A stretch of 64,000 nt of DNA, from the NCBI RefSeq assembly GCF_003641205.1, contig NZ_CP032762.1:434001-498000 (forward strand), in the 5' to 3' direction. Source of the DNA: Rhodococcus sp. P1Y. Lineage in GTDB: Bacteria > Actinomycetota > Actinomycetes > Mycobacteriales > Mycobacteriaceae. The number at the start of each line of letters is the position of its first letter. Within the stretch, counting starts at the first letter, position 1. The notes under the pieces were generated by a model that did no database searches, had not been told where the DNA came from, and saw only the letters and a list, made by a program, of their open reading frames with translations. This document shows positions 20,242 to 50,636 of the stretch, one piece after another. The position numbers and the translations under genes are program-made.

Positions 20242-23979
<3,738 letters not shown>

Positions 23980-25141: not shown

Positions 25142-26050
25142 CTACTTGGTGCCACTGCGGCTCGCAAACGGGTCACTTGCGCCGGGGATCGACATTTCGA
25201 ACAAGTGGGCGGCCGCAACAGCCATGTGTACAGGTGCGTCTGCGATCAAATTGCTCGCGCTTCTCTCCGTGAGGCGCGAGAACGACGCGAGGATCAGAGC
25301 ACGAGCCTGGTTCTCGTCGAGAGTCGATCTGCTCTGGCTTGCCTTCGACAGGCCCTCGAGTGCGGAGGGTAACGACAGATCATGATGTAGCGAGCGAAAT
25401 TCGACGTCTAGAATCTTTCGCCTGACCACACCCGGATCGAGTGCCGCCATGGCATCTTTCTCTATTGCCCGCGCCATCGATGTTGCATACTCGATTCCCT
25501 TGAGGATGTACAAGTCTCGGTACATATCGATAGGATCGTCGGCGGTGTGTACGAAGTTGAGTAGGTATGCCTCGGGCTTCAGCATGTGTCGTAGCTGCCC
25601 AGGGCGTTGACGCGAGGCGTCAGCGGGTCCCTTGTTTTCGCTAAGTAATGCTGAGGCAGAAGTCGAGGATTGATGCCTCAGCACTAGAATTATAGTCTCC
25701 GTTGAGTTGAGAATGTTGTCCATGACCCATAGGCGGTACCTTGTTGCTTTGTGCAGTTGCCAGTGCCACAGAAGTCGACTCTTTTCCGCGGTAATCCTCG
25801 CGGTGTCAAACGCTACGACATCGAAACCTTGTTTAAGAAGCCATGACAATGTTGCCGATGCCTTGCGGGCGAGCACGCCGCAGGGCTTGATGGCCAGTAT
25901 TGTGTATTTGCGGGAATGGTCGAGTTCGAGTTCCGACCGGCTGAACTGATCGACAAGTTCGCGTATATGAATGTCACCGCGGATAACTTCCCACTTTTGC
26001 GGATCGACATCTTTACTTAGCATCTGCAGGATACGATCGTTGGCGATCAT
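25142..26050 (-). CDS. NDP-kinase-like protein
   Basis: A 302-residue protein whose central part (~50-185) follows the nucleoside-diphosphate kinase fold: ILAIKPCGVLARK (the family's KPDGV), KGPADASRQRPGQLRH, and LLNFVHTADDPIDMYRDL. H168 aligns with the phosphorylated His of NDP kinase (NxxHGSD). The ~45-residue N-terminal and ~110-residue C-terminal extensions are unlike ordinary 140-residue NDP kinases. The Asp of KPDGV is Cys. It may phosphorylate or transfer a phosphate to a pathway intermediate rather than act as housekeeping NDK. It ends the leftward unit and overlaps the aminotransferase by four bases. Confidence 0.65.
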   Translation of the reverse strand: MIANDRILQMLSKDVDPQKWEVIRGDIHIRELVDQFSRSELELDHSRKYTILAIKPCGVLARKASATLSWLLKQGFDVVAFDTARITAEKSRLLWHWQLHKATRYRLWVMDNILNSTETIILVLRHQSSTSASALLSENKGPADASRQRPGQLRHMLKPEAYLLNFVHTADDPIDMYRDLYILKGIEYATSMARAIEKDAMAALDPGVVRRKILDVEFRSLHHDLSLPSALEGLSKASQSRSTLDENQARALILASFSRLTERSASNLIADAPVHMAVAAAHLFEMSIPGASDPFASRSGTK

Positions 26051-27345
26051 AATTCGTCGTTTCTTAGAGCCACTCGGAGCAGGCCGTACATTGCGTCAAT
26101 CTCGTGGTCCGAAACCAACAGGGACGGGTGGACCAGGATTGTGTCGGGTGCCAGGCCGGTTGAACTGACCAGCAACCTGTCGTTTTCTGCTGTCAGTAGT
26201 TTATGCCGGACTCTATGAGCCTGTGGGCCGTTCAGCTGCAGCTTGAGGATCGCGCCTATGGCCGAATGGCTACGTATTATTGTCGGACATTCGGCCTTCA
26301 GCTGCTGCCCAATAGTAGCGAACTTTTGTTGCAGGTGCATTGCTTTCTCGCCTAAGCCTTTTAGGCCTATTTCGTCGATCTTATCCAGTACTGCGTGGAC
26401 GATACCGAGGGTCAGAGCGCACGAAGCGAAAGTGGCTGACTGCAAGCCAGGCTGAGCTGTTTCTGGATGTGATACATGATTTGCTGCCCAAATACAAGAG
26501 AACGGTGCCATGGAGTTTGACAACGCTTTGCATCCGACGACGATGTCGGGAAAAATTTCGGCTGGCATATAAGACCACAGAGGACCGGTCCTGTATATCC
26601 CCGTGAACGTCTCGTCCGCGATAACCAGACCACCGGCATCTTGAACTTGTTTGCAAATCGCCCTGAGGTAATTATACGACAACAGATTGCCGCCTCCGAC
26701 ATTCTGAAAAGCTTCAACAATTAGGATTGGTCGGATTCTGCGTCCTCGATACCCAGGCGAATGGGTTCCGCCCCAGAGCTCAGCACTGATCAGTTGGACG
26801 GCAATTGAAGTGCTATGCGCCACGGATTCCGCGCCGGCGTCGGAGGATACTGTCGGAAGGCGGACCACTGGATAGCTTGAGATGGAGGATGTCTGCCGGT
26901 AACGGAAGCTGCTACTGAGCGCCGAGGTGTACATCGATCTACCGTGGTAGGCGCCGGCTAAAACGAACACTTGATGGTCGCCTAAATAGTTTCCGGCCAG
27001 TTTGACTGCCGTCTCGATCGCGGAGGCGCCACTGGTATCAAAAATAACCCTTCCCGACTGGGTGCCAGCGGGCTCAAAGATTTTTCTAAGTCGGCGTCCG
27101 AGTCGCATGCGAACATCTGTTTCCACGAACGATGGCGCGGCTGGCAGCTTCGCTAGATTACGGGCCGCCGCATCGATGATCGAGTGATCATAGCCGAGAA
27201 GACTGCCCCCATTGCATGCCTCACCGTCGAGGTATCGGCGACCGTCTCGGTCCCATAGGTATATACCCTCGGAAGAGACCACGTGTGGGTTTGGAGCAGA
27301 GTACACGTGATCAATGGTCATAAGTGAGTCGTTGTCGTCGGTCAC
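26047..27345 (-). CDS. Class III PLP aminotransferase
   Basis: A 432-residue class III (ornithine/GABA/diaminobutyrate-type) aminotransferase. GTG 27345 overlaps the preceding stop (GTGA), which favours it over the longer frame to 27471; ATG 27321 is an alternative. SGASAIETAVKLA is the PLP phosphate-binding loop, GAYHGRS the conserved HG, VIADETFTGIYRTG holds the PLP-pairing Asp, and the Schiff-base Lys is in VVGCKALSN (~273). It would install an amino group on an aldehyde or keto intermediate, or use glutamate as donor. It lies between the formyltransferase and the NDPK-like gene. Confidence 0.85.
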   Translation of the reverse strand: MTDDNDSLMTIDHVYSAPNPHVVSSEGIYLWDRDGRRYLDGEACNGGSLLGYDHSIIDAAARNLAKLPAAPSFVETDVRMRLGRRLRKIFEPAGTQSGRVIFDTSGASAIETAVKLAGNYLGDHQVFVLAGAYHGRSMYTSALSSSFRYRQTSSISSYPVVRLPTVSSDAGAESVAHSTSIAVQLISAELWGGTHSPGYRGRRIRPILIVEAFQNVGGGNLLSYNYLRAICKQVQDAGGLVIADETFTGIYRTGPLWSYMPAEIFPDIVVGCKALSNSMAPFSCIWAANHVSHPETAQPGLQSATFASCALTLGIVHAVLDKIDEIGLKGLGEKAMHLQQKFATIGQQLKAECPTIIRSHSAIGAILKLQLNGPQAHRVRHKLLTAENDRLLVSSTGLAPDTILVHPSLLVSDHEIDAMYGLLRVALRNDEL

Positions 27346-28088
27346 TTGCTGGAAGCCTCTTCGATAACGTGGGGATCGTGCATGGGGGCCCCATTGAGGT
27401 AGGGCTGATAGTTGTCGACATCGTAACCATGAAACGACAATTCGCCAGATAGGAACGAACGCAATACCCATTCTAGAGCGGGTTTGTCGGATTCTTTCTT
27501 TTGTCGATTTTCATGCTGTTTCAAATATTCAGGTTCCAGCAATTCACGGGGTCTCGTGGCAAAACTCACCGCAGGTCCGACCGCGAGTAATGGTCCTTGA
27601 TCAATGCCACTGTTGACAAGAAACGTTGATGTACGAGTGTGGTCGATGCCCTGGTCGTGGGCCAGTTTCACTGCGGACATGCCGACAAGTTGCCTCGTGC
27701 CGTCGCCAAGTTTGCGTCTGAGGTCCCCGGGATGTTGGTTTATCATGCGGCCCGCGTACTCGCTGAGCAGACTGCCCCGGATAATCCTGTGATAGGCAAG
27801 TACAATGAGATCGATCTTCCCATTCCAGCTCTCCCAGCGGTGGAGATAATCTCTAACGTCGTCATGGTATTCCTGCTGTGCGGTAATGCGCCCGGTACCG
27901 ACTTGCTGAATGTATCTCGCGTCGCAGATCAGCGATGGTATTCCGAGGCTACGGGCTCGAGCCACCGCTCCGCAATCGGGTGCATCGGAGAAATTCAGTG
28001 CGACGCCTCTACCCGTAGTTTCGCGCATCACCTGCTCGGCTGTGCTCAAATTGTTTCCGGTAGCAGATGTGAATGTAATGACGTTCAC
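27342..28088 (-). CDS. PurN-like formyltransferase
   Basis: A 248-residue formyltransferase of the GART/PurN fold. FSDAPDCGAVARARSLGIPS resembles the PurN nucleotide/substrate loop. DLIVLAYHRIIRGSLL precedes the catalytic Asn and His in INQHPGDL (N117, H119), and D163 in NSGIDQGPLL corresponds to the essential Asp. The enzyme should transfer formyl from 10-formyl-tetrahydrofolate to an amine, presumably one made by the aminotransferase downstream. It is not the housekeeping purN: it lies in a biosynthetic island, has an unusual insertion before the Asp and is translationally coupled to its neighbours. Confidence 0.78.
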   Translation of the reverse strand: MNVITFTSATGNNLSTAEQVMRETTGRGVALNFSDAPDCGAVARARSLGIPSLICDARYIQQVGTGRITAQQEYHDDVRDYLHRWESWNGKIDLIVLAYHRIIRGSLLSEYAGRMINQHPGDLRRKLGDGTRQLVGMSAVKLAHDQGIDHTRTSTFLVNSGIDQGPLLAVGPAVSFATRPRELLEPEYLKQHENRQKKESDKPALEWVLRSFLSGELSFHGYDVDNYQPYLNGAPMHDPHVIEEASSK

Positions 28089-28828
28089 GTCAGTGCTGTC
28101 CGTTCGAAGGCGATGCGTTGAATGAGTTCGAGCAAGTAAGTACTTGCATGGCGTCCAGGCTTGACGAAGTCCATGTGTCTTGCGTGCTTTACGAGGTGTA
28201 GATCTGGACGAACAGTATGCTGCGTGAAGGTGAACTCTATCGACATATAACAGGGAATGGTCGAGTCATCTGTGCCGTGCACGACGACGGTTTTCTCGGG
28301 AATCTGATTCAGGGTGAGCACGCGCGCGATGTCCGCGTCCGTTGGAGAGTTAATCGAGTTCTGGACTAGGGCGCTGGCAGCGTTGTCGCCCAGGGCGAGG
28401 TACTCGGGTCGATTGAACAGTGTGAAGGGAGCAACCGCTACGGCGCTGGCGGAACTCCGCCCGAAAGTCCTGTTGAACTCGGTCGCCGATCGGAGAGCCA
28501 AGTACCCACCGACACTGTGTCCGACGAAGACGATGTGTTTGTGCCGACGATCGGTCTGTTTTCCATGGCTGCAAGCGATAAGAACGTCGTGGACCATTTC
28601 GCTGATCGTCGCGCTTGTCTCGACCGTCCGATAACCGACTGCGACAGCTTCGATGCCGAGAACAGCAAGGTGTTCGACCAACCATGCCATCGACTCGGGT
28701 GTTTTCTCCGCTCGCCAGAAGCCCCCGTGAACCAGGACAACCAGGGTTGGCGAGTGCGTATTGAGCGCGCGAAGTCGTTGGGAGGTGACTACGTCCTGCT
28801 GTGCATGCTGCTTCAGTTGGATTTTCAT
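28085..28828 (-). CDS. Alpha/beta hydrolase
   Basis: A 247-residue alpha/beta hydrolase. VLVHGGFWRAEKTPESMAWL forms the oxyanion-hole region (HGGF), VFVGHSVGGYLALR the nucleophile elbow (GHSVGG), and TVVVHGTDDSTIPCYM the acid. The His is probably in VKHARHMDFVKPG. This HGG type is common to esterases and kynurenine-formamidase-like enzymes, so hydrolysis of an N-formyl or ester group is conceivable given the formyltransferase that overlaps it by four bases. Alternatively it may be a type II thioesterase releasing the acyl chain from the ACP. Confidence 0.75.
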   Translation of the reverse strand: MKIQLKQHAQQDVVTSQRLRALNTHSPTLVVLVHGGFWRAEKTPESMAWLVEHLAVLGIEAVAVGYRTVETSATISEMVHDVLIACSHGKQTDRRHKHIVFVGHSVGGYLALRSATEFNRTFGRSSASAVAVAPFTLFNRPEYLALGDNAASALVQNSINSPTDADIARVLTLNQIPEKTVVVHGTDDSTIPCYMSIEFTFTQHTVRPDLHLVKHARHMDFVKPGRHASTYLLELIQRIAFERTALT

Positions 28829-28841
28829 GACTGGATAGTCA

Positions 28842-29528
28842 TTAGTGCGGATGGATGAGGCCCAAGCCGACCAGCTTCTGCACCCAATTGTCGTAAGTTG
28901 TTTGGTCCATCAGAACCTCTTGTCGACGTTCAGAGGTTTCGTCTACTTCTCCCAATCTCCACCACACGTTGCCGTCTGACAGGCGCATAATGAACGCTTT
29001 GCGTTTCTTCGCGGGTGACTGAATCATCAGTGAGATCGTGTCTGGCGGAGTCAGAGTCGTGTGAAGCTGATTGTGGTCGATGCAAAGCACTGAGCCCGCA
29101 GGTTCGATTCGAGAACTAACCACCCTAAAGTCTTCGGGCTTGGCGTTCTCGTTCAGCTCGTGGTTGGACCGGTACAGATTTTGCTCATACTGTCCGTGCA
29201 GAATCTTCGCGCCGAAAGAGAAGCGGTGGTTGTGTACACGCTCGTACTGTTGTGTGTGCGCAAGCCGTAGCCGTACGCGGTAACCACGCTCTGGCTCGTC
29301 CCACAAGACGATCTTGTCGTCCAGTGAATGAATCTCGCACTTTGCGCGGAGGTGATCAGATTGCCAAGAGTGGTGGACCAGTGCCGTCAAGAGTTCCTTG
29401 TCAGCGGACAACATGTCGAGAGCCTTCGATACAGCGGGATACGCTGTCTCAATCGTTGTCCACTCAATGGTTGGCAAGGCAGCCATTCGCCTGCCGATAT
29501 CGATTGCGGCGGCTGCCGTAGAGGTCAT
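28842..29528 (-). CDS. Cupin-like protein A, paralogue of 29525-30229
   Basis: A 228-residue protein with a cupin-like core: ERVHNHRFSFGAKILHGQYEQ (H99, H101, and Q113 at the acidic metal-ligand position) and IDHNQLHTTLTPPDTISLMI (H152, H156). This gives the spacing of a metal-binding cupin. It shares the HxHRFSFxxKIL signature and overall organisation with the adjacent gene, from which it overlaps by four bases. An iron-dependent oxygenase or isomerase is possible, but I do not recognise a characterised family. The tandem pair suggests a heterodimer or two successive steps. Confidence 0.65.
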   Translation of the reverse strand: MTSTAAAAIDIGRRMAALPTIEWTTIETAYPAVSKALDMLSADKELLTALVHHSWQSDHLRAKCEIHSLDDKIVLWDEPERGYRVRLRLAHTQQYERVHNHRFSFGAKILHGQYEQNLYRSNHELNENAKPEDFRVVSSRIEPAGSVLCIDHNQLHTTLTPPDTISLMIQSPAKKRKAFIMRLSDGNVWWRLGEVDETSERRQEVLMDQTTYDNWVQKLVGLGLIHPH

Positions 29529-30229
29529 TTGATTACCCCGATCGATCGGATGTTGCTCAGCAATTCGTCAAGATACCGTTCATCCATTGACACCTTTTGG
29601 CGGCGCGCCTGTGGCTCCTCCGTCTTTCCATACCTCCACCACGCCTTACTGGTCTCTCGTTCGGTGATGATCGATCGCTGTTTCTCCGCGGGTCCACGCA
29701 GAAAGAGCGAAACCGACTGCGGTCGAGTGAATGTGGTATGTATCTCACTATGGTGTAGCGAGTAGAGGGAGCCAGGAGCCTGGTACGTCTGGAATGTTGG
29801 GATAACACGTGCATTGAGCGGCACCGCCTCGGTGTCGTTCTGTACGGTGTCGTCGATCAGGCCCCAGTCGTCGACCTCAAGTTCGTGCCGGGTGTGCATA
29901 TACCCGCCAGTCAGAATCTTTGAGACAAAGGAGAATCGATGGTCATGTGGTCGATCTTTGTGTTCGTTGGTGCTGATGTGCAACCGGAGCCGAACACCGT
30001 TAGTGGGTGACTCAAACAGGTGCAACTTGTCAAGTAACCGATGACGCTCAAAGTTAGACCGCGCGTTGACGTCTTCACGCGCACACCCGATCAGTTTCGA
30101 TAGCAGTTCGGGCTTGGACGAGATTTCGTCTAACAAGTCCTTGCCATCGCTGAGCACGGCTTCCATGTTGCCCCATCGAGCACCGCCGAGACCCTCTACG
30201 GCATCAAATACATCCTCGACCGTCAGCAA
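29525..30229 (-). CDS. Cupin-like protein B, paralogue of 28842-29528
   Basis: A 234-residue paralogue of the preceding entry. DRPHDHRFSFVSKILTGGYMH (H95, H97) and SLYSLHHSEIHTTFTRPQSVSLFL provide His ligands at the cupin positions; the acidic ligand position reads GGY. The C-terminal SMDERYLDELLSNIRSIG corresponds to DQTTYDNWVQKLVGLG in copy A. It is the first gene of the leftward sub-operon 30229-25142 and faces the methyltransferase gene across a 192-bp AT-rich promoter region. Function unknown. Confidence 0.62.
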   Translation of the reverse strand: MLTVEDVFDAVEGLGGARWGNMEAVLSDGKDLLDEISSKPELLSKLIGCAREDVNARSNFERHRLLDKLHLFESPTNGVRLRLHISTNEHKDRPHDHRFSFVSKILTGGYMHTRHELEVDDWGLIDDTVQNDTEAVPLNARVIPTFQTYQAPGSLYSLHHSEIHTTFTRPQSVSLFLRGPAEKQRSIITERETSKAWWRYGKTEEPQARRQKVSMDERYLDELLSNIRSIGVIK

Positions 30230-30421
30230 GGTAGCCCTCCCCTAAGCGTAATGCTGTGTAGCGCCTGACTATCCAGATCACTGTACTTCATCAACTCCGC
30301 CTCGTCACCCCCCTGGAAGAGTCAAGTCGCGCAGCAGACACACAGAGTGGTGTTGGAGCATTGGAGCGCTGCGTAGGAACTGTTTCCTTATTGCACAGTA
30401 TCATTCAGGTATATTTTTAGT
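30230..30421. promoter_or_regulatory. AT-rich divergent promoter region
   Basis: These 192 bases separate the leftward cupin sub-operon from the rightward methyltransferase. Near the right end, GTATATTTTTAGTATG contains a TATATT -10-like element about 10 bases before the methyltransferase start at 30422, so its transcript may be nearly leaderless. Confidence 0.45.
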
Positions 30422-31378
30422 ATGAAATCGAGCACCCAGGGCGCCTCCGAAGTGAAGACCCTTGCGGACCAACTTGCCCTCAGCGATATTCCACTAAGGG
30501 GTGGTGAAGTTGCTGATTGGGAACGGGAAGCCAACCTGTTGCTCGCAGCAGCCGAATCCGCAAACCCTAGCCGCAGCCTGGACACTCTTGTCGCTTATCG
30601 CAAACGTGGAGTTCCCCTCGCATACCTGGTCGGCACAGAGCTGTTTCTTGGTAGTGAATACGCGACAGAGACTGGCGTCGTTATTCCGCACCCCGCGAGT
30701 GAACTACTCGCGCTGGCGACCGCGCACGCCCTTGGCGGTACAACCCAACCCAGACCGCGCTTGCTCGAAGTTGGTGTGGGAGTGGGTAATATTACGGTCT
30801 CGGCGCTGGCGTCGGTGCCGACTGCGGAAGCTCATTGCAGCGAACTGCAAGGCGCGGCGTTACGGCTGACCCAGATTAACGCGAGCACGTTGCTTGATAC
30901 ACCGAGCCGGTTGCGGTTGTACCAGGCGTATGACACTGAAGCCATATTTGAGCCCTTCAGCCGTCTACCCGTTGCCGGTGTCGATGTCGTCGCCGCGAAT
31001 CCTCCGTATCTCATCGATGGCGATCCTGTATCCGAAGCGACGAAACGTTCTGGGATAGCACATTTCAGTTACGCCCCGGTCAATGACCCCTCGTGGTTTC
31101 TACGTGAAATCATTGAAGCCCCTGACGGGTTGCTGGCGGAGAACTGCACGATCCTGATGGAGTGTGCAGACCCGTACTTGGAGCATCACACCAGGGTGAT
31201 GCGTGACGCGGGCTGGAACACCGAGGCATATAGTCGCGAGTCTTACTTGAACCAGTTTGGCGTACCGATGGATCGAAAAGTTAGAACGATGACGCCCTCA
31301 CTGCACCGGTTGCTCCATTCGTGGCGCGGGGAGAACCGCCTCACACGGGCGGCGGCGACAACCGATGTGGCCCTCTAG
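30422..31378 (+). CDS. PrmC/HemK-like SAM methyltransferase
   Basis: A 318-residue class I methyltransferase. LLEVGVGVGNITVSAL (~114-129) binds SAM and AANPPYLIDG carries the NPPY motif at 193-196, which in HemK/PrmC enzymes methylates a glutamine amide nitrogen, and in related enzymes methylates nucleobase amines. The N-terminal helical domain is shorter and different from PrmC. It is the only rightward gene in the island, with its own promoter. A role in tailoring the product or in self-resistance is possible. No ribosome-binding site is evident. Confidence 0.75.
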   Translation: MKSSTQGASEVKTLADQLALSDIPLRGGEVADWEREANLLLAAAESANPSRSLDTLVAYRKRGVPLAYLVGTELFLGSEYATETGVVIPHPASELLALATAHALGGTTQPRPRLLEVGVGVGNITVSALASVPTAEAHCSELQGAALRLTQINASTLLDTPSRLRLYQAYDTEAIFEPFSRLPVAGVDVVAANPPYLIDGDPVSEATKRSGIAHFSYAPVNDPSWFLREIIEAPDGLLAENCTILMECADPYLEHHTRVMRDAGWNTEAYSRESYLNQFGVPMDRKVRTMTPSLHRLLHSWRGENRLTRAAATTDVAL

Positions 31379-31503
31379 CGTTTCATGGTTGGGCGCATCA
31401 ACTCCGCCCAGGGGCAGCCCCGGCAAGTGCTGGCGGCGCCCAAACTCAGCGAATCTCTGGTGATCGCTAGTCACACTACGCGGGCGCAGTCGGAGCAACG
31501 GAG
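31379..31503. terminator. Convergent gene end region
   Basis: The rightward methyltransferase ends at 31378 and the leftward nucleotidyltransferase ends at 31504, so these 125 bases must terminate two transcripts. I see GC-rich dyad-prone sequence (for example CGCCGCCA-like blocks) but no classic T-tract hairpin. Confidence 0.25.
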
Positions 31504-33174
31504 TTAACCGTGGCTTACCGCAACGAGATCTCGAGCTTCATCCAGCGGAAACGCGGAGTCTAGGAAGGCTGCCATCCTGACCCAGTCGTAACTAAGTTCC
31601 AATGTTTCGCGCCATTCCGCTGGCGATACGAACGACGAAGGGAACAGCGATCCGCCGGTCACATCTCGTACGCTATGGACGAATTGATCGACGTCCTTGA
31701 GCGCCGATTCGGCGTCCTCCCTCCCTGCGATGGGAGAACCTGCTTCGAGTGCAAGTGCAGTCTGTACGAGTTGACCAGGAAGACCGGGGATTCTCGTCAT
31801 GCGAGCGCATGCTTCCTCGTCTGCCTCACGACGCTGCCAGCTGGAGCCACCGAGTCCATTACTGTTCGAACTTCTTGGGACGAGCCCGTTTGCGGTGAGT
31901 GCGACCATTGCCGCTTTGCGGACCATTCTTCGAGTAGCAGATTGAAATGTTCCCCATTGTTCAGCATCGAGGGCGCCAATCGCGTCCTCGCGGGAGTTCT
32001 CAATCTCCGCGTTGGCCCAGACCAACGCAATTCCGGCGCCGGCGAATTGCGCCGGCGCAAGGGGAACAAGCCTAACGTCCTCCGTCGCGTCTCCTACCTC
32101 GGCTCCTCTGATTGAGATGACCGGTAGCGAGGTGGACGGTGCGGACGATGACTGGGAACGTCCGTTGACTTCTTCCCCGTTTGACCACCGCAAGCCCAGG
32201 AACCCCAGGCGGTGAAACTCTGAGAAGCACTGGCCCGGCCGGGCTACAACGCTGCGCAAGTCAGCTAGCTGATCAGCTGCGCATCGGTTGAAGTCGATTG
32301 AGCGCCAAACTGTTCTTGCCGCTGAGCTCAATACATAGACTTCTTCGCGATTCCGCACGATGTGTACCCGGTCTCCGATTTGCCACGTCGTCGTGTCGGG
32401 CTTTCGAGTAAAGAACACCGAGCGCGGCTCAAGATCGGACAAGTCGAAGCCGAAGTCGCTTAAAAGGATCTTCGCGCGGATGGCATAGCTACGCATGTCC
32501 TCGTTCGTCCCGCGCGGGGTGATCAATAAATCGCGAAACCGCTCGAAGCGGTCATGAGCCGATGGCAGTCGTGCGAACTGCAACGATGTCCATTTCACGC
32601 TTAGATAACTTTCACCCTGTGAGCACAGCCACGCCTTCGCGCCTTGCTCGACGGCTGTGCGATACCACTGAACCGCTTCTTGCCACTCTTCGATGGCTTC
32701 CATCGCCAACCCGCACCGAACGGACTGGTTGACAAGCTGTGCGAACCAAGTCTTAGACGCATTGTCGATGGCGGCGGGCGGAACTAGGGACTTCAGGTGG
32801 TCCGTTCCAACACTTCGTCGGTAGACGACCGACCGGCAGAGGCGTTGGACTCTATCGAGTTGATCGAACGTAACGCCGTCGAGAGATGACGAGTCGTTCG
32901 AGATTCCAGACAGGACGTGGTTGATCTCAAGTGCGATCTGGTGCACTGACCGTACTCGAACTTCGACTCGCCGGCCGTCGCGAAAAATGATCGTTGGTAT
33001 CAGGGGAGTCGTTCTTTCACCGGGCTCGATGAGAAGAAAGTCAACATCTGAAGTGCTGTTGCCGAATCCTTCGGCGATAGAACCCTCGAGTACGACGCCG
33101 TAGCCGGGTTGCGCATCTAGTGCTTGCAACGCCTCGTCTAGCAGACGCGCGTAGTGTGCAGAGATGGATTTCAT
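31504..33174 (-). CDS. Pol-beta-type nucleotidyltransferase with PqqD-like segment
   Basis: A 556-residue protein. At residues 31-48 GSIAEGFGNSTSDVDFLL is the nucleotidyltransferase signature GS-x(10)-DxD, with D43 and D45 as metal ligands. At about 264-330, VHIVRNREEVYVLSSAARTV followed by WRSIDFNRCAADQLADL resembles a PqqD/RRE-type winged-helix domain, which in other pathways presents a peptide or carrier. The C-terminal 200 residues are helical and unassigned. It may adenylylate or nucleotidylate a substrate presented by the PqqD-like part. It overlaps the next upstream gene by one base. Confidence 0.65.
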   Translation of the reverse strand: MKSISAHYARLLDEALQALDAQPGYGVVLEGSIAEGFGNSTSDVDFLLIEPGERTTPLIPTIIFRDGRRVEVRVRSVHQIALEINHVLSGISNDSSSLDGVTFDQLDRVQRLCRSVVYRRSVGTDHLKSLVPPAAIDNASKTWFAQLVNQSVRCGLAMEAIEEWQEAVQWYRTAVEQGAKAWLCSQGESYLSVKWTSLQFARLPSAHDRFERFRDLLITPRGTNEDMRSYAIRAKILLSDFGFDLSDLEPRSVFFTRKPDTTTWQIGDRVHIVRNREEVYVLSSAARTVWRSIDFNRCAADQLADLRSVVARPGQCFSEFHRLGFLGLRWSNGEEVNGRSQSSSAPSTSLPVISIRGAEVGDATEDVRLVPLAPAQFAGAGIALVWANAEIENSREDAIGALDAEQWGTFQSATRRMVRKAAMVALTANGLVPRSSNSNGLGGSSWQRREADEEACARMTRIPGLPGQLVQTALALEAGSPIAGREDAESALKDVDQFVHSVRDVTGGSLFPSSFVSPAEWRETLELSYDWVRMAAFLDSAFPLDEARDLVAVSHG

Positions 33175-36111: not shown

Positions 36112-36179
36112 AGGGTCAGGTTTCCTCTCATAGCAAGTGACGGGCGCCCATGGGTGAGTGTGGGTCTTGGAAAGACCCG

Positions 36180-37868: not shown

Positions 37869-38134
37869 CTCGCTCGGCTCCGCTCCATAGCCGTCGCCAC
37901 CATGGTCACCACGTCGTGCACGGTAGTGATGTCGGCCGTGTCCGCCTCGGTCAACTCGATCGCGAATGTTGTCTCTAAGGCGTTCGTTAGCTCAATCAGG
38001 TCGACCGAGTCGAGCCCGGCATCAGCGGTCAAACGGGTGGCGTCCTCGATCTGACCCTTCGATATGTGACCTACCCGGGCCAGCAAATCAGCGATCTGCT
38101 CACGGCGATCGTGACTCGGCGTGGGTGAGTTCAT
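37865..38134 (-). CDS. Acyl carrier protein
   Basis: An 89-residue acyl carrier protein. The phosphopantetheine Ser is S43 in DAGLDSVDLIELTNALE. ATG 38134 is chosen because it overlaps the stop of the upstream gene and gives the usual length; the longer frame to 38224 is a shadow of the PEP-synthase-like gene. It is coupled to the FAAL and would receive its acyl chain. Phosphopantetheinylation must come from elsewhere in the genome, since no transferase gene is present here. Confidence 0.87.
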   Translation of the reverse strand: MNSPTPSHDRREQIADLLARVGHISKGQIEDATRLTADAGLDSVDLIELTNALETTFAIELTEADTADITTVHDVVTMVATAMERSRAR

Positions 38135-40830
38135 GCTGCGTCGCCGCCTTCGTTTGCCGGGTCTCTGGGCAATCGTTCGATGGTCCCCCGTTCCCCGTCG
38201 AGTAGGACTTCGTCTCCGGTACACAACCAGCGAGTCACACCCGGAACTCCAACAACCGTAGGAAGACCAATCTCTCGGGCGACGACTGCGGAATGGGAAA
38301 GACTCGAACCTCGCTCAACGATCAGACCAGCAGCGGTCGGGAAAAGGGGCGCCCACCCGGGATCGGTCCTCATTGCGCAGATGATTTTTCCAGCTACCGC
38401 TACAGCGTCTGTCGGACTTTCGACTACAACAACTTTGGCGCGCACCACTCCGGGCGCACACCCGAGTCCCTTCATCTTCTCGGCCGTGTGGTTCTCCGGA
38501 GAACTGACGACGGCACCTACCTGCTGATAAGGCAATCCTTCCACGTCGATGCGGTTGGCCATGTCGACATCCAGGTATGACTTGTGTTCGAGACGTCGCG
38601 TCGCTACGAGCGAGTCGAGATCCGAGGAGACCGCACGGCCCGATACGTACGCGTCGATCTCGTCGACGGTGAGCATGTAAATGTCCTCGGGTGAATCCAG
38701 GGCACCCAGCTCGTGTAAGCGCATGCCATATGCTCGGTAAATATCCCGGGTGGCACCGAATGCGTAGGTCCGAAGTAGTCGCAGCTTTTCCCTGTCCGCT
38801 ACGGATTTTCTTGCCCATGACACAATCGCGCGGAAGTAGATGCGTCGAAGTGGCCCTAGCCGGGCTGCGGTATCGCGTCGGGCCTTTCGAAAAGCAGTTG
38901 CTGGCCGGTTGGTGAGTCGTTCGGCCACGATGTCGCTGTGTGCAACCAAGTTGCGCAGCAACGGCACTAGGGTGTGGGGTTGATCGCGGATAGTCTGTGT
39001 CTCAAGTTTGAGTTCGCCTGCGGACCGATCCCCGTATCGACTTACATAGTCTTGTAGTCGCTGAGCGACACTACTGTCGGACGCGGTGAGTCGCTCGTAC
39101 ACGTCCACAGTGGATTGTTCGGTGTCCAGCACCAACGTTCGCAATGCCCCGTCCCGACCGATACAGTCGGCGATCTCTGCCAGCAACAGTGTCGGCTGGA
39201 TGGACTCGATGCCCTCGATGTTTGACATCAGGTCCGCGAAGACCGAGTCGGCGGTGTCTCCGTCGAGTTCGGCGGTGATACGTCGAATTGCGCCGCATGT
39301 CATCATTACCCGGAGGTCATTGACGTTCGGCACTTGCCAGCTGTCCATCATCTCCCGGTGGACGATACTGATGGCCTTGTTGAGCTCGTCGATGGATTGT
39401 GTTGCTAAAGCGGGACGGTCGATCTGGGTGTAGACGCGGTCGAAATTTCTGACAAAACGCGCGACACTCAAGTCAAGGGTGGCGAAATTCGCGGCGATCC
39501 GCACTCCGACTTTGAAGAGGCGTGCGCGGCGTAGGAGCCCTTGACTTGCTGCGCGTGATTCTGATTCGTCGGCTGGCTCTTCGAGGTGCCACATCACACG
39601 CTCGGTTTCCTCTTTGTTCGTTTCGTAACCAGGAAGGAGTCCTAGCATGGCGTACCAGCTTTGGAGGTTGTAGTAGACGCGTCCGTTCAAGTAGCCAAGC
39701 ATGTTTCGGGCGTACGGTTTGAAGGTTGCCAGTTCCCCGGGTGCTACGCCCACAGCCTGAGCGAAGTCTGTAAAGACGCGCTCGTAGGCGAGTGAGGCGA
39801 AGGAGAAGGTAAGTGGCGAGGTGTAACCATTGAAACTCTCTTGGATGTTTGAGTTATCAAATGACCTGTGTGATAACGATTGCCGAACTGGCGGAGCAGG
39901 AGGTAACCCCGTGATGGGACGGGCTTGTAGAACGTAGAGTACCCCCTCGGCGATAGTCCATTCGACGTCGACTGGGACGCCAAACCACTTCTCCGCTCGC
40001 ACAGTAATGGCACAGATCCGTGCACCGTCGTCCGCCGATAGGACAGCCGAGTCGGCTTGTTCTTTTGGTACTGCGCTAAGTTTGGTTCCTCCATCTAGAT
40101 CGCTGACGACCATCGCTTCTTGGTGCGTGAGGGTCTGTCCCCTGGGCTGGCCGTCGCGCGTAAATCGGTACTCGTCCGCGTCTACCCCACCTGATACGAC
40201 ACCTTCGCCGAGGCCCCATGCGGCTGACACAACAACGGTCTCCCGTACGCCCGACACGGGGTCAGCCGAGAAGGCAACACCGGATTTGGTCGCGTCGATC
40301 ATCTGCTGCACAACAACTGCCACCGAGGTGTCCTCGACACGTGCTCCGGCCGAGTGCATGTAAAGCACGGTGTGCGGCTGGAATGCAGAGGCCCAGCAGG
40401 CGAGCACGCAGCGCACGCATTCGTCCAGACCTAGAACGTTGAGGAAGGACTCGAGTTGGCCGGCGTAGGACTTCTGCGCCGAGTCCTCTCCTACCATCGA
40501 GCTTCGAATCGCCATGGCACCGGGACCTAATTCGCCCCGAGCGTCGCCCAAGGTTGCGCGGAGCCGTCGTGGAGCATCGGCGGATGTGATGCGGTGGCGT
40601 ATCTCTTGGCAGAGAGGGGCTAGGTAATCGAGAGGGGGGGCGGGCTCCTTGCGGAGTTCGCGGTCCAACTGTGCCAAGAGGGGGCGGACTTGGGCTGCGT
40701 CAATATGTTCTGAGAAATAGTCCGAAGTAACTACTACATACGGGGGTACGTTGAGTCCTACCTTCACGCACGAATCAAGGCCGAGGGCTTTGCCGCCTCG
40801 CGAAGCCGCAGTGTGGTTGATTGGTATCAC
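38131..40830 (-). CDS. PEP-synthase/rifampin-phosphotransferase-like dikinase
   Basis: An 899-residue protein with the two terminal domains of PEP synthase-type enzymes. The N-terminal ATP-grasp part (to ~330) has GGKALGLDSCV, MAIRSSMVGEDSA, VVVQQMIDATKSGVAFSADP and VDVEWTIAEGVLYVLQARPI. The C-terminal domain carries the phosphorylated His in VERGSSLSHSAVVAREIGLP (~844). It lacks the C-terminal PEP/pyruvate barrel of PEP synthase, matching the rifampin-phosphotransferase layout: ATP's beta-phosphate is passed via the His to a hydroxyl. It might phosphorylate a hydroxyl on the product or on an ACP-bound intermediate. It overlaps its neighbours at both ends. Confidence 0.78.
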   Translation of the reverse strand: MIPINHTAASRGGKALGLDSCVKVGLNVPPYVVVTSDYFSEHIDAAQVRPLLAQLDRELRKEPAPPLDYLAPLCQEIRHRITSADAPRRLRATLGDARGELGPGAMAIRSSMVGEDSAQKSYAGQLESFLNVLGLDECVRCVLACWASAFQPHTVLYMHSAGARVEDTSVAVVVQQMIDATKSGVAFSADPVSGVRETVVVSAAWGLGEGVVSGGVDADEYRFTRDGQPRGQTLTHQEAMVVSDLDGGTKLSAVPKEQADSAVLSADDGARICAITVRAEKWFGVPVDVEWTIAEGVLYVLQARPITGLPPAPPVRQSLSHRSFDNSNIQESFNGYTSPLTFSFASLAYERVFTDFAQAVGVAPGELATFKPYARNMLGYLNGRVYYNLQSWYAMLGLLPGYETNKEETERVMWHLEEPADESESRAASQGLLRRARLFKVGVRIAANFATLDLSVARFVRNFDRVYTQIDRPALATQSIDELNKAISIVHREMMDSWQVPNVNDLRVMMTCGAIRRITAELDGDTADSVFADLMSNIEGIESIQPTLLLAEIADCIGRDGALRTLVLDTEQSTVDVYERLTASDSSVAQRLQDYVSRYGDRSAGELKLETQTIRDQPHTLVPLLRNLVAHSDIVAERLTNRPATAFRKARRDTAARLGPLRRIYFRAIVSWARKSVADREKLRLLRTYAFGATRDIYRAYGMRLHELGALDSPEDIYMLTVDEIDAYVSGRAVSSDLDSLVATRRLEHKSYLDVDMANRIDVEGLPYQQVGAVVSSPENHTAEKMKGLGCAPGVVRAKVVVVESPTDAVAVAGKIICAMRTDPGWAPLFPTAAGLIVERGSSLSHSAVVAREIGLPTVVGVPGVTRWLCTGDEVLLDGERGTIERLPRDPANEGGDAA

Positions 40831-41288
40831 CTCGATGCTCCATCGGCGCGTGACGCAGGTTTAGCCGCGCTGGCGAGTGAATGGTCCACATCGTGAGCCG
40901 CGAGGGTCCCTTGATGATGGAGTGCCTTCATGACGTCGCCCGTGACGGACCAGATAGTTGAGCGTCTTGTCACGCGCCCGGCCATGTGCAGCGAGTAGGA
41001 GTATAGGTAAATCGCCTCTGACAGCCGCCGCAAGCGCTCGTCTTGTAAGTGCCACGGGCAGTTGACTTTCTCGGCCCAACGCTCCAGGAACACCGCAAGC
41101 GCCTGCGACTTGTCTTGAACATCGCCCGAGGGTGTAACTCGAATGAAGTGCTCGTCGAGCAAGTTCGACACCTGGTCGGCAGTGGTGGAGTCAGTGGGAT
41201 GGTGAAATAGTGACTCTAATTCTCGCACTGTGGAGAGAAGTTGTTCGCTGTGTCCTTGAGGTTCCGCGTCTATTGTCCCGGTGTCCAT
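40827..41288 (-). CDS. NTF2-like (DUF4440/SnoaL-type) protein
   Basis: A 153-residue protein with an NTF2-like core: LESLFHHPTDSTTADQVSNL, LLDEHFIRVTPSGDVQDKSQ and AIYLYSYSLHMAGRV, then TRRSTIWSVTGDVMKALHHQGTL. The paired RRSTIW..HHQGT is typical of DUF4440. Such small folds act as cyclases, isomerases or hydratases in natural-product pathways. It overlaps the dikinase by four bases and follows the radical-SAM gene by three. The first 20 and last 25 residues are polar and uncharacteristic. Confidence 0.68.
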   Translation of the reverse strand: MDTGTIDAEPQGHSEQLLSTVRELESLFHHPTDSTTADQVSNLLDEHFIRVTPSGDVQDKSQALAVFLERWAEKVNCPWHLQDERLRRLSEAIYLYSYSLHMAGRVTRRSTIWSVTGDVMKALHHQGTLAAHDVDHSLASAAKPASRADGASR

Positions 41289-41291
41289 GGG

Positions 41292-43166
41292 TCAGATCTT
41301 CTCCAGCTGAGCGACGTGCAAAAGCGCCTCTTCGTGATTGTCTACGTACTTTTCGATTCCTAGACGCCATCGAAGACTATACGCCGCCGGCCTCAGGTAC
41401 TCGGTACGTACCTCGTCGTTGTTGCGCAACGCCCTAACGACATTGGGAACATCGACCTTCAGTTTCTCGTCGCGTCGGTATGACTCATCCTCGGGCGCCG
41501 GTGGGTTGGGTAGAGATGCCCGTTCGTCATTCAGGATGGGAAGTGTGAGCATGTCAAAACGGAACACCTCATTTAGAATCCACTGCTTCTCGGCCTTCGC
41601 TAGCGGGGTGATTTTGGTTTGCCACCATGTTTCGAGCATTTCGCGTACGCGCTTGTCTAGGAACAGAGCCCGAACCGCCGCGTTGACCGCTGCGGGTTCT
41701 ACGATTGTGCGCGGAGACTTCAGCGGAGTTGAGGCCTCCTCGTCGCTGGCATCGAACCATTCCGCGAGGCTGAAAAGGATCTGCGACTGTGTGAGTCCGG
41801 CGTATGCAAGTGCGGGTCGCCAGATGTACCGGAAGAATGAGTTCTCCGCGACGGAACGTGCCCATAGCAGAAATCCTTGCATCTCTAGGTTTTCCTGGAG
41901 GGTCATCGTTTTGGATGCCAGCACGTATTCGAAGTCGTCAGCGTCGCCGCGTGAGGTGACGAAGCCCAGTTGCTCACGTCGGGCGCTGTAATCGGTGTTG
42001 GGTAGGAGCATCAGCGGGTAAGTCGCAATCCGCGGCACGTGCAGGGATAGTTCGTCGTATCCGCGCAGGAACGTCTCAGTCGTGTCCCCTGGGGCGCCCC
42101 ACAGCAGCTCTGCGTAACATTCGAGACCTTCGGATGAAAGCCACTCTGCGAGCGCCTTCCAGTCATTCAACTTCATGTTGCGTCGATTCATTTCCTCGAG
42201 CGCAGAGGCATCGAGCGTCTGCAGAGCGATAGTGAAGGAACTGTGCAGTCCCGCCTCGCGCATCTTGGTGACGATTCTGTAGAAGGTCGCAGATTTGTTC
42301 TTCGCCCAGGAGGACTCGATCGCTCTCGGGTAGCCGGTTCGTTCCTTGAGCCGTACAACGTCTTCCAGAAATTCCTCATCCTGCGGTTGCATGCCGAAGT
42401 TTGAGTCGCAAAGGACTACCGAGTGAACTTCGTAGAAGGCGAACATTTCAAGTTCCTCAAGCAGCCGTTCCCGCGGAAACCGGCGCATCTTCTGGCCGAT
42501 CGCGCCGCCCCAATAGCAGAAGGCGCAGTGATAGGGGCAACCTCGGTTTGTCTCCATTAGTGCGACGTCATACCTAAACTTGCCGTTTGCATGCGTCATC
42601 GGGATGGCGCCGCTCAGGAATGGAGACACAATCGATCCCAGGTCCTCAATTCGAGGCCTTTCCGGTGTGGTCTTGATACCCCCGTCTGGAAGTCTGTACG
42701 AAATACCACGGATAGCTTCGCCGGATGGTAGGGGAAACTTGTTCTCGATCCATGCCTCGAGCAGTTCAGGGAAGACGAGTTCACCCTCACCGTTCGCAAT
42801 CACATCGATGTCGTCGCTCAGCCGGAACACGCGCTTAGCCTGATTGGCAACGTGCGTTCCTCCCAGTACGACCAGCCCTGAACTATTAAGCTGCTTGAAG
42901 GTTTCCGAAAGCAGTAGCGCAGAACGGAAGCTCCACCCGAATACGGAGATGGCGAGTACATCGGGGATCCCGTCTCGAAACACCTCAGCTATGGTGTCCC
43001 CAATCGTCATTCCTCCGCGAAGGTTCACGATTTCGGTATCGCATGCGTCGCCGAGTACCGGGTGTGCGTCCATTGCCGCTTTGATGTAGCCGATTGCGAG
43101 GGGCATGGACTCTAGTGGCATGTCCCATACGCCTTGTTGCACAAGCTTTACTAGCGTTCGAGCCAT
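41292..43166 (-). CDS. B12-binding-domain radical SAM enzyme
   Basis: A 624-residue protein with an N-terminal cobalamin-binding Rossmann domain (SVFGWSFRSALLLSETF, VVLGGTHVANQ, IANGEGELVFPELLEAW) and a radical-SAM core whose cluster Cys are in NRGCPYHCAFCYWGG (~208-215). ATG 43166 has a GGGGGA ribosome-binding site; the frame upstream to 43277 is not family-like. Known members methylate unactivated carbons or rearrange rings or carbon skeletons. It probably alters the acyl chain or the head group. It may depend on the same cobalamin supply as the neighbouring metH. Confidence 0.83.
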   Translation of the reverse strand: MARTLVKLVQQGVWDMPLESMPLAIGYIKAAMDAHPVLGDACDTEIVNLRGGMTIGDTIAEVFRDGIPDVLAISVFGWSFRSALLLSETFKQLNSSGLVVLGGTHVANQAKRVFRLSDDIDVIANGEGELVFPELLEAWIENKFPLPSGEAIRGISYRLPDGGIKTTPERPRIEDLGSIVSPFLSGAIPMTHANGKFRYDVALMETNRGCPYHCAFCYWGGAIGQKMRRFPRERLLEELEMFAFYEVHSVVLCDSNFGMQPQDEEFLEDVVRLKERTGYPRAIESSWAKNKSATFYRIVTKMREAGLHSSFTIALQTLDASALEEMNRRNMKLNDWKALAEWLSSEGLECYAELLWGAPGDTTETFLRGYDELSLHVPRIATYPLMLLPNTDYSARREQLGFVTSRGDADDFEYVLASKTMTLQENLEMQGFLLWARSVAENSFFRYIWRPALAYAGLTQSQILFSLAEWFDASDEEASTPLKSPRTIVEPAAVNAAVRALFLDKRVREMLETWWQTKITPLAKAEKQWILNEVFRFDMLTLPILNDERASLPNPPAPEDESYRRDEKLKVDVPNVVRALRNNDEVRTEYLRPAAYSLRWRLGIEKYVDNHEEALLHVAQLEKI

Positions 43167-43234
43167 GTTTTTCCCCCGAGCTATCAATGTCGCTGGACAC
43201 GATCGGGTCGGATGTGTCCATGTTCGCGGTGGTG

Positions 43235-44548
43235 TCAGCTTGCTGTGATGACCAACGAGCGTTTGAAGGTCATGCAATAGATCGTTCGGAAGATCCTCTC
43301 TTCACCCGTTGGTTCGGGCTGCGTTACGTCGTAAGGTGCGGCTTCCATTCGGGCAAAGACCCGGCTGATGGCTTCTCCGAGTGACCACGCGTGCGTGTGT
43401 GGATACTCTTCGAAGCCCTTGCAGCCGTGCATTAGGTGCTCGAACCGCTCGTACGTACTTTCGGGCCAGTTCTCGGTCCTGGGGTGCCGGTGGTGATGGT
43501 CGTGGTTGATTGAGTCACCGGGAAGAACTGCTATTCGAACCAGGAGGTGGTAAAAAGCGGCGCGAAGAAACCAGATGGCGACGGAACGCGTATTTCGGAT
43601 TCGGCCATTGTCGAGTGAGGGTGCCTCGTCCAGCAGAAATCGACTTTGTTGTAGTAATACAAGTCTTCGGCGCGGCGCCTCATTGAGGAGTGTTCCCCAG
43701 TGGTGCTCACTGAAGCTTCCGAGGAGGCCGGTGACGTTGAAGATCAGAAACACTGGAACAACGTAGGCGAGCGCGAAGTCGAGGAGTGCCCCTGTGAGCG
43801 CTGCCAATGCGATCAAGGCAACCGCGAAGGTCCAGACTGCCAGTTGACGGGCGATCGGTTCGGAACGCTGCCAATCCCACAGCCTGTATCGCGTGTACTG
43901 GAGGTAAGTCCAGGGCGTTGCGATCAGCCATATGAGTCGCCATCGGTAGTAGTGGCTGGTCAAGCCCGGCCGGAAACCTAGGGGCATGAAGGGCGCTTCT
44001 TGGTCTTGGTAAGTGCACATGGCCCGGGTGTGGTGGCTGCGAATGTGCTCGTCTCGGTATGAGTCAAGCGACGATGCAAACATTACCAGCGATGATGCGA
44101 AAGCTAATGTTCGGTTAAGTCGTTCGGATTCGAAAAGAGTCTTGTGAGTGGCATGGTGAAAGATGTTGAACAGTGCCCACATTCGTCCGACCACGAGAAT
44201 CCATGAGATCGGTAGCAGGTACCAGAGTCCCCACTCTACGAACGCATAACCCAATGCCACCGCGAGGGCAAAGCCGACGAAGGCTTCGATGGTGCACAAC
44301 ACCTTGGTTCGCCGATATAGAGGCTGTTGTCCTTCATGCGGACAGCCCGACATCCACGTGAAGGCAGCCTCAGCCATTCTTGTGAAGGGCCGCGGCAACA
44401 CAGATCGGATTGCACGACTGACAGATTCGCGCACCTCCGTATTGAGGTTCCTTGCATTTTCAATAAACACTTGGCGTTCGGCCGTCGAACCGCGGCTGGT
44501 GGGTTCAGCCCCGCTAAAAGGATCCCACCTATCGAGGTTAGCCAGCAT
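43235..44548 (-). CDS. Membrane fatty acid desaturase/acetylenase-like
   Basis: A 437-residue integral-membrane di-iron desaturase. The three histidine boxes are present: HHATH (131-135), HIRSHH (168-173) and HDHHHRHP (349-356). There are four or more membrane segments around residues 88-125, 145-162, 206-220 and 235-275. It may introduce a double or triple bond into the acyl chain on the ACP, as in FAAL/desaturase/ACP (JamABC-type) alkyne modules; whether it is a desaturase or an acetylenase cannot be told from the sequence. It is the first gene of the long leftward unit and lies 68 bases before the radical-SAM gene. Confidence 0.83.
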   Translation of the reverse strand: MLANLDRWDPFSGAEPTSRGSTAERQVFIENARNLNTEVRESVSRAIRSVLPRPFTRMAEAAFTWMSGCPHEGQQPLYRRTKVLCTIEAFVGFALAVALGYAFVEWGLWYLLPISWILVVGRMWALFNIFHHATHKTLFESERLNRTLAFASSLVMFASSLDSYRDEHIRSHHTRAMCTYQDQEAPFMPLGFRPGLTSHYYRWRLIWLIATPWTYLQYTRYRLWDWQRSEPIARQLAVWTFAVALIALAALTGALLDFALAYVVPVFLIFNVTGLLGSFSEHHWGTLLNEAPRRRLVLLQQSRFLLDEAPSLDNGRIRNTRSVAIWFLRAAFYHLLVRIAVLPGDSINHDHHHRHPRTENWPESTYERFEHLMHGCKGFEEYPHTHAWSLGEAISRVFARMEAAPYDVTQPEPTGEERIFRTIYCMTFKRSLVITAS

Positions 44549-50513: not shown

Positions 50514-50519
50514 CTTCTG

Positions 50520-50592: not shown

Positions 50593-50636
50593 GTGTATTC
50601 AGTTGGTCTAGCTGGCCGGTAAAACTCTACCGACCG

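What the first reader, a model, noticed from the sequence alone, without database searches (positions are those of the whole stretch)
25142..44548. Undescribed FAAL/ACP/desaturase biosynthetic cluster with a nucleotide- and amine-handling half, without PKS or NRPS
Sixteen largely overlapping leftward genes and one rightward methyltransferase form a compact, AT-richer island between IS remnants. One half activates and modifies an acyl chain (FAAL 36180, ACP 37865, desaturase 43235, B12/radical-SAM 41292). The other half resembles sugar, amine and nucleotide chemistry (NagA-like, HAD phosphatase, extended SDR, nucleotidyltransferase, class III aminotransferase, formyltransferase, NDPK-like) plus a dikinase. 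Family assignments are from visible motifs; the pathway is inferred. I recall no characterised cluster with this combination.
Basis: partly seen in the sequence, partly recalled or inferred. Interest (0 to 1): 0.9.

Follow-up and report, generated by a model that had tools for sequence, protein, structure and literature searches.

The report
Hybrid lipid-phosphate biosynthesis gene island
A probably foreign stretch of DNA in an actinobacterium mixes genes like those that make salinipostins (lipids with a rare phosphate bridge) with genes from a separate, apparently unstudied Streptomyces gene group, and may make a new kind of phosphorylated lipid.

Summary
The genes are real: 16 leftward genes in two units plus one rightward methyltransferase, lower in GC, between inverted IS3-type remnants. 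(A) Dikinase, ACP, FAAL, nucleotidyltransferase (NTase), SDR and NDK-like kinase form a core that recurs, mostly complete, in 9 other actinobacterial genomes. One of these loci is very probably the salinipostin (spt) locus of Salinispora tropica; the window has homologues of 6 of its 9 genes. The butyrolactone synthase AfsA is not found in the window's genome. (B) NagA-like enzyme, HAD phosphatase, two cupins and an NDK-like kinase, often with hydrolase, formyltransferase and class III aminotransferase, form another cluster type, seen at 8 of 9 Streptomyces loci read. In the window two B genes lie between A genes, so one hybrid pathway is likelier than two neighbours. A KedN5-type radical-SAM methyltransferase and a desaturase are extra. 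Best reading: a spt-type machine that reduces, phosphorylates and nucleotide-activates an acyl chain, then joins it to an amine/formyl head instead of a butyrolactone. The product is inferred. Verdict: new variant of a known kind; no cluster with this gene set was found, but the core is not new.

The parts
43235..44548 (-). membrane fatty-acid desaturase-type di-iron protein, 437 aa; first gene of leftward unit 1
   Evidence: PF00487 50.6 bits over cut-off 29.7; His-rich boxes at residues 131, 168 and 349
41292..43277 (-). KedN5-family cobalamin-dependent radical-SAM C-methyltransferase
   Evidence: NF033712 859 bits against cut-off 700; CxxxCxxC at 247
40827..41288 (-). DUF4440 / NTF2-like small protein
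   Evidence: PF14534 24.4 bits, just under cut-off 25.2
38131..40830 (-). PEP-synthase/RPH-type dikinase (core A)
   Evidence: PF01326 and PF00391; phospho-His motif at 841; 30-34% to the 9 core-A loci
37865..38134 (-). acyl carrier protein (core A); longest frame runs to 38224, likely ATG at 38134 overlapping the dikinase stop (my reading)
   Evidence: PF00550 38.3 bits; GLDSV site
36180..37868 (-). fatty acyl-AMP ligase type enzyme (core A)
   Evidence: best solved relatives are FAALs 3pbk and 3kxw; PRK09192 316.7 bits, below its cut-off 600; in 7 of 9 core-A loci
35455..36111 (-). HAD phosphatase (module B), 53-56% identical in 5 Streptomyces loci, 31% in 3
34289..35473 (-). NagA-like amidohydrolase (module B)
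   Evidence: no Pfam match; 36-37% in 8 Streptomyces loci; 44% in a Rhodococcus plasmid beside phosphatase, AMP ligases and ACP
33174..34292 (-). SDR, thioester/acyl-reductase type (core A)
   Evidence: PF07993 143 bits; best solved relative MxaA 4u7w; 41-46% match inside the NTase locus in 9 of 9 other genomes
31504..33174 (-). nucleotidyltransferase, ANT/KNTase fold plus further domains (core A); last gene of unit 1
30422..31378 (+). HemK/PrmC-like methyltransferase (NPPY), divergent strand
   Evidence: TIGR03534 85 bits, below cut-off 199; NPPY at 193
29525..30229 (-). cupin 2 (module B); first gene of leftward unit 2
   Evidence: 40-46% in 8 Streptomyces loci; 31% to cupin 1; fold not modelled
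28842..29528 (-). cupin 1 (module B), thiol-dioxygenase fold with H99/H101/H152
28085..28828 (-). alpha/beta hydrolase (module B), GHSVGG
   Evidence: matched in 5 of 8 module-B loci at 27-30%
27342..28088 (-). formyltransferase (module B), NxHP and GxDxGP kept
   Evidence: PF00551; 37-43% in 4 of 8 module-B loci
26047..27471 (-). class III aminotransferase (module B); real start probably about 50 codons inside the longest frame
   Evidence: PF00202 137.8 bits; 38-39% in 4 of 8 module-B loci
25142..26050 (-). NDK-like kinase with C-terminal extension; found with both core A and module B
   Evidence: PF00334 32.3 bits over cut-off 27; NxxH kept
24144..24809 (.). IS3-type remnant, left edge
   Evidence: DNA similarity to Rhodococcus plasmid stretches, some annotated IS3 family transposase; inverted copy at 49132-49823
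49132..49823 (.). IS3-type remnant, right side, inverted copy of the left one (73%)

Best explanation
A hybrid biosynthetic island. Core A is homologous to the salinipostin (spt) operon and would work like it on the lipid side: FAAL loads a fatty acid onto the ACP, desaturase and B12 radical-SAM enzyme modify the chain, the thioester-reductase-type SDR releases it as aldehyde/alcohol, the dikinase phosphorylates it, and the NTase with the NDK-like kinase makes a nucleotide-activated alkyl phosphate. Module B (aminotransferase, formyltransferase, NagA-like amidohydrolase, HAD phosphatase, two cupins) makes an amine/formamide head that takes the place of the gamma-butyrolactone made by AfsA in spt. 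The product would be a lipid phosphoester (di- or triester, or a phosphoramidate). SHOWN: homology, recurrence of both gene sets, interleaving, no AfsA found, most catalytic motifs intact. INFERRED: substrates, order of steps and product.
For: Nine other genomes with a strong NTase match (8, 1): dikinase 9 of 9, SDR 9 of 9, ACP 8, NDK-like 8, AfsA 8, UbiA 8, FAAL 7 (the ACP counted with an L122 ACP as query, since the window ACP matched only in L121). In all 9 the SDR's best match lies in that locus, and only one other place among the ten genomes reaches E 1e-20. L121, from a 5,183,331-bp contig, has dikinase-FAAL-NTase-ACP-SDR-NDK-UbiA-luciferase-AfsA over 11.2 kb, agreeing with spt = RS20900-RS20940, 11.1 kb, in a table of a paper on S. 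tropica (passage of PMC7888443). Module B: 8 of the 9 Streptomyces loci read carry NagA-like, cupin 1, cupin 2, NDK-like and HAD. HAD and NagA-like lie between FAAL and SDR, frames overlapping from SDR to HAD, then a 68-base gap to FAAL. AfsA: no match in G000, found in 7 of 8 relatives in the same search. Control: 65 dikinase loci of 12 kb or more match at most one further cluster gene (7 of 65).
Against: No product or transcript is known. Core identities to L121 are low (30-45%). UbiA and the luciferase-type enzyme of spt are not in the window, so the transfer step has no candidate. FAAL is absent from 2 of 9 core loci, and in 5 of 9 genomes (G246, G041, G118, G380, G595) the window FAAL's best match is elsewhere in the genome. 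AsnB, AurF-type and PqqD genes, present in 8 of 8 module-B loci, are not in the window, so module B may act differently. NagA-like, radical SAM and cupin relatives also sit in plasmid clusters without other close counterparts of these genes.
Confidence: 0.55

Rival explanations
1. A lipid amine without phosphate in the product: FAAL/ACP/desaturase/radical SAM make the chain, SDR gives an aldehyde, the aminotransferase an amine, the formyltransferase a formamide; dikinase and NTase only act as transient activators.
For: SDR is thioester-reductase-like and a class III aminotransferase and formyltransferase are present. The dikinase also matches the prodigiosin ligases PigC and RedH (347 and 323 bits, below their cut-offs).
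Against: In the 4 module-B loci where the aminotransferase and formyltransferase were found there is no FAAL, ACP or SDR within the stretch read, so their usual substrate is probably not an acyl aldehyde; dikinase, NTase and NDK-like kinase would be surplus.
Confidence: 0.2
2. Two unrelated pathways that happen to share an island.
For: The two gene sets occur apart in all 9 core-A and all 8 module-B loci read (about 20 kb each); the island has two leftward units split by the methyltransferase.
Against: Module-B HAD and NagA-like are inside the core-A unit, with overlapping frames towards SDR, and the only NDK-like gene of the island lies at the far end of the module-B unit. A dikinase (47%) and a cupin 1 (67%) are on contigs of the same length, 793,384, the cupin named Mycobacteroides abscessus.
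Confidence: 0.13
3. A salinipostin-type butyrolactone phosphotriester cluster whose AfsA is supplied from elsewhere.
For: Homologues of six of the nine genes of L121 are present.
Against: No AfsA match in the 5.87-Mb single-contig genome, while the same search finds it in 7 of 8 relatives; UbiA and the luciferase-type gene are not in the window.
Confidence: 0.05
4. A decayed, non-functional island.
For: IS remnants on both sides and an MFS gene fragment at 45039-45680; no transporter or regulator family among the 17 genes.
Against: All 17 frames are open and nearly all catalytic patterns looked for were found; my two aminotransferase patterns gave no match, though by eye a PLP-type lysine stretch is there.
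Confidence: 0.07

Closest known systems
Salinipostin (spt) cluster of Salinispora tropica (read here as L121; identity of the locus inferred)
   Same: dikinase 33%, FAAL 35%, NTase 35%, SDR 45%, NDK-like 30% identity, and an ACP
   Different: no AfsA, UbiA or luciferase-type monooxygenase in the window; adds module B, KedN5 radical SAM, desaturase, NTF2-like protein and methyltransferase; gene order differs
Apparently undescribed Streptomyces cluster type (L159-L164, L166, L167)
   Same: NagA-like, cupin 2 - cupin 1 pair in the same order, NDK-like, HAD; hydrolase in 5 of 8, aminotransferase and formyltransferase in 4 of 8
   Different: those have AsnB, AurF-type oxygenase, PqqD and a small separate NTase, and no FAAL, ACP, dikinase or SDR match within the about 20 kb read
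KedN5-family cobalamin radical-SAM methyltransferases
   Same: 41292-43277 passes the family cut-off
   Different: KedN5 is recalled to act on an enediyne naphthoate; no enediyne genes among the 17
Rifampicin phosphotransferase / PEP synthase / PigC-RedH enzymes
   Same: dikinase domains and swivelling His
   Different: below the cut-off of all 25 NCBIfam families listed; none over 47% identity among the 120 listed of 1,516 relatives, itself excepted
FAAL-desaturase-ACP (Jam-type) terminal-alkyne trios (recalled)
   Same: the three enzyme types are present
   Different: not tested beyond family level; the desaturase is separated from ACP and FAAL by three genes

Membership tests
salinipostin-type (spt) cluster | AfsA gamma-butyrolactone synthase | tested here: not met
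   no PF03756 match in G000; 7 of 8 relatives positive in the same search; no significant tblastn match in the window
salinipostin-type (spt) cluster | dikinase, FAAL, ACP, NTase, SDR and NDK-like together | tested here: met
salinipostin-type (spt) cluster | UbiA-type membrane transferase and luciferase-type monooxygenase | tested here: not met
   no significant match in the window; rest of the genome not searched for them
salinipostin-type (spt) cluster | phosphotriester product | not testable with these tools
   needs metabolite analysis
Streptomyces module-B cluster type | NagA-like, cupin pair, HAD, NDK-like | tested here: met
Streptomyces module-B cluster type | AsnB, AurF-type oxygenase, PqqD | tested here: not met
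   no significant match in the window
KedN5-family radical SAM methyltransferase | score over the NF033712 cut-off | tested here: met
   859.1 against 700 bits
fatty acyl-AMP ligase (FAAL) | closer to FAAL than to acyl-CoA ligases | tested here: met
   FAAL entries lead both lists, but no curated cut-off is reached and the FAAL-specific insertion was not examined
MNT-HEPN toxin-antitoxin (because of the NTase fold) | HEPN R-x4-6-H motif in the HEPN-like domain (378-510) | tested here: not met
   no such motif in 378-510; no PADLOC match of the NTase
PqqD/RRE domain in the NTase (residues about 250-330) | profile match to PqqD | tested here: inconclusive
   hhalign probability 1.5%; suggested only by eye and secondary structure
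thiol dioxygenase (cupin 1) | cupin fold with a 3-His metal site | tested here: met
   His assignment by motif, activity untested; cupin 2 not modelled

The most novel reading that the evidence does not exclude
The salinipostin phosphate-attachment machinery is a portable tool: here it is uncoupled from butyrolactone synthesis and joined to an unrelated amine/formamide-making gene set, giving what would be, to my knowledge, the first class of lipid phosphotriesters or phosphoramidates with such a nitrogen head. A smaller, AfsA-free ACP-SDR-dikinase-NTase-kinase version in another genome (G380) would be a second independent use.
Probability: 0.3. Interest if true: 0.82.

Novelty: new variant of a known kind. 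Interest (0 to 1): 0.64.

Why it matters
How nature builds phosphotriesters is, as far as I recall, poorly understood, and salinipostins probably act on serine hydrolases (so suggested in the review PMC6681047, passages seen). Separating the shared core (dikinase, NTase, SDR, usually ACP) from AfsA shows which genes are likely to handle the phosphate and lipid, and makes that testable. The comparison also brings out a conserved Streptomyces cluster type for which my two paper searches found no description.

Tried and rejected
SDR as a sugar enzyme: rejected. A PqqD domain in the NTase: not supported. A precursor peptide was not searched for. Defence system: no PADLOC match for 4 of 5 proteins tried, a 27.9-bit match of the methyltransferase to mad2 only. 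Exact direct repeats of 13 or more bases between 24.1-25.2 and 44.5-51.5 kb: none, inverted ones only. More cupin 1 carriers: 1 of 395 other genomes of the phylum sample, at 27%, and 17 of 370 others of the family sample, at 26-33%; the contexts of these were not read, so no second hybrid is excluded or shown. Plasmid contexts read that share little with the window: L022 and L133 (radical SAM), L127-L129 (NagA-like; weak aminotransferase match in L128 and L129), L131-L132 (NDK-like), L019-L021 (cupins) (of these L131, L132 and L127 were seen only as annotation). VIA-align did not list a PqqD fold, which is no evidence either way. Rows dropped: G028 (NTase match 31 bits, no dikinase or FAAL) and L165 (a cupin and a weak FAAL-like match only). 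The 9 Streptomyces loci read were among the best of the 18 matches, so the 8 of 9 is not a random sample.

Papers: Kudo 2020 and Creamer 2021 on spt are not held and are recalled only. Passages seen: PMC6681047, PMC8609351, PMC7888443; all others only as search listings. The library holds open-licence papers only, so 'not found' means not found there.
Full report
WHAT IS THERE. The window is bases 434001-498000 of a single-contig 5,868,661-bp genome. The 16 leftward genes and one rightward methyltransferase exist as described. They form two tight units, 44548-31504 (desaturase, radical SAM, NTF2-like, dikinase, ACP, FAAL, HAD, NagA-like, SDR, NTase) and 30229-25142 (cupin 2, cupin 1, hydrolase, formyltransferase, aminotransferase, NDK-like), with the methyltransferase in the gap; 13 of 15 leftward junctions overlap or are 13 bases or less. 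The ACP probably starts at 38134, its ATG overlapping the dikinase stop, and the aminotransferase about 50 codons inside its longest frame (my reading). GC is 0.566 inside and 0.638/0.624 outside. The left neighbour is metH, 20242-24159. An IS3-type remnant at 24144-24809 has a 73% inverted copy at 49132-49823; transposase fragments lie at 46454-47092 and 47246-47794 and tRNA-Arg/Ser genes at 50519-50726. Of 37 genomes of the genus searched, only this one has the NTase, so the island is probably acquired. The genus is not named by any tool; 42 of 62 plasmid records that match the IS3 remnant are Rhodococcus, so a Rhodococcus-like host is my guess.

CORE A. The NTase is a rare family: 39 proteins at E<=0.01 among the 7,996 candidates scored, the window's own included. 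In 397 genomes of the order 10 match, the window included; in 396 of the phylum 6 match, one of them new. Leaving out one weak match (G028), 9 other genomes carry it. I read 19-20 kb around each. Presence: dikinase 9 of 9, SDR 9 of 9, ACP 8 (with an L122 ACP as query; the window ACP itself matched only in L121), NDK-like 8, AfsA 8, UbiA 8, FAAL 7 (in 6 of these 7 in one frame with the NTase). The SDR is the best linkage evidence: in all 9 genomes its best match lies inside this locus at 41-46%, and only one other place reaches E 1e-20. FAAL is weaker evidence: it is absent from two loci, and in 5 of 9 genomes (G246, G041, G118, G380, G595) the best match lies elsewhere. One locus, L121, carries nine genes over 11.2 kb: dikinase, FAAL, NTase, ACP, SDR, NDK-like, UbiA, luciferase-type, AfsA. 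Its contig length, 5,183,331, is the size I recall for Salinispora tropica CNB-440. A table in PMC7888443, a paper on S. tropica, gives spt (salinipostin) as RS20900-RS20940, 11.1 kb (passage seen); that this is nine tags assumes steps of five. So L121 is very probably the spt cluster. AfsA gives no match in the window's genome and is found in 7 of 8 relatives in the same search (L134 of G595 added by tblastn). G380 also lacks AfsA: its locus is ACP, SDR, an unmatched 259-aa frame, dikinase, NTase, thymidylate-kinase-like, so the core can exist without butyrolactone synthesis.

MODULE B. Cupin 1 matched 18 of 323 Streptomyces genomes; I read 9 of those 18 loci, among the best-matching. Eight carry NagA-like, cupin 2, cupin 1, NDK-like and HAD (HAD 53-56% in five, 31% in three; cupin 1 about 49-50% in five, 31-35% in three), and also AsnB, an AurF-type oxygenase, PqqD and a small NTase; aminotransferase and formyltransferase are in 4 of 8 and the hydrolase in 5 of 8. 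None gave a match to dikinase, FAAL, ACP or SDR in the stretch read. The small NTase is related to the N-terminal part of the window NTase (about 40-48 bits against its profile). Two paper searches found no description of this cluster type; the one paper listed was on lasso peptides. A Rhodococcus plasmid has a 44% NagA-like gene beside a phosphatase, two AMP ligases and an ACP. Cupins of the same family at about 30% sit beside annotated formyltransferase and aminotransferase genes in a Streptomyces and a Nocardia plasmid.

WHY ONE PATHWAY. HAD and NagA-like (module B) lie between FAAL and SDR (core A); the frames from SDR to HAD overlap, and 68 bases separate HAD from FAAL. The NDK-like gene, present in both sets, ends the module-B unit. 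As a control, 65 other dikinase loci of 12 kb or more match at most one further cluster gene, and that in 7 of 65. By contrast the nine core-A loci match three to six core genes with the window's proteins and the eight module-B loci six to eight module-B genes. A 47% dikinase relative (one of two at 47%) and a 67% cupin 1 named Mycobacteroides abscessus are both on contigs of 793,384 bases, a hint of a second hybrid that I could not read; its NTase is not in the list, which a fusion to FAAL, too long for that search, would explain.

MECHANISM. Best reading: FAAL -> ACP -> desaturation and methylation -> SDR reduction -> phosphorylation by the dikinase -> nucleotide activation by NTase and NDK-like kinase -> joining to an amine/formyl head from module B. 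Every step after homology is inference, and no transferase in the window replaces UbiA. Rivals are listed with their odds; the phosphate-free lipid amine is the strongest.

VERDICT. Observation confirmed; interpretation partly right. The combination is undescribed as far as these searches go, but its core belongs to a characterised kind. New variant of a known kind; interest 0.64.

Noticed in passing
L159-L164, L166, L167: A conserved Streptomyces cluster type with NagA-like, two cupins, NDK-like, HAD, AsnB, AurF-type oxygenase, PqqD and a small NTase; L159 and L163 also with ornithine cyclodeaminase-type, carbamoyltransferase or PALP genes. My paper searches found no description.
   Followed up: partly
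L116/L135 (G380): An AfsA-free smaller core: ACP, SDR, an unmatched 259-aa frame, dikinase, NTase, thymidylate-kinase-like protein, next to SelB- and AIR-synthase-like genes.
   Followed up: partly
L130 (Streptomyces anulatus plasmid), 8884-13891: An NDK-like domain in a 783-aa protein annotated as amidohydrolase, followed by inositol monophosphatase and nucleotidyltransferase genes, with a TOMM leader-binding protein upstream.
   Followed up: no
L126 (Rhodococcus pyridinivorans plasmid pSID), 9199-17756: NUDIX, NagA-like (44%), inositol monophosphatase, AMP ligase, ACP, AMP ligase, serine hydrolase: another small cluster using the NagA-like enzyme.
   Followed up: no
window 45039-45680: An N-terminal fragment of a DHA2-type MFS efflux gene beside the cluster; the only transporter-like sequence that I noticed next to it, and it is broken.
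   Followed up: no
L019, L020 (Streptomyces and Nocardia plasmids): The same cupin family (28-31%) beside annotated formyltransferase and class I/II aminotransferase genes, a cross-clade pairing.
   Followed up: partly
G000:C1 about 2.69-2.78 Mb and 3.72-3.75 Mb: Very large open frames with repeated AMP-binding domains, probably NRPS (up to 10,055 codons), in the same genome.
   Followed up: no
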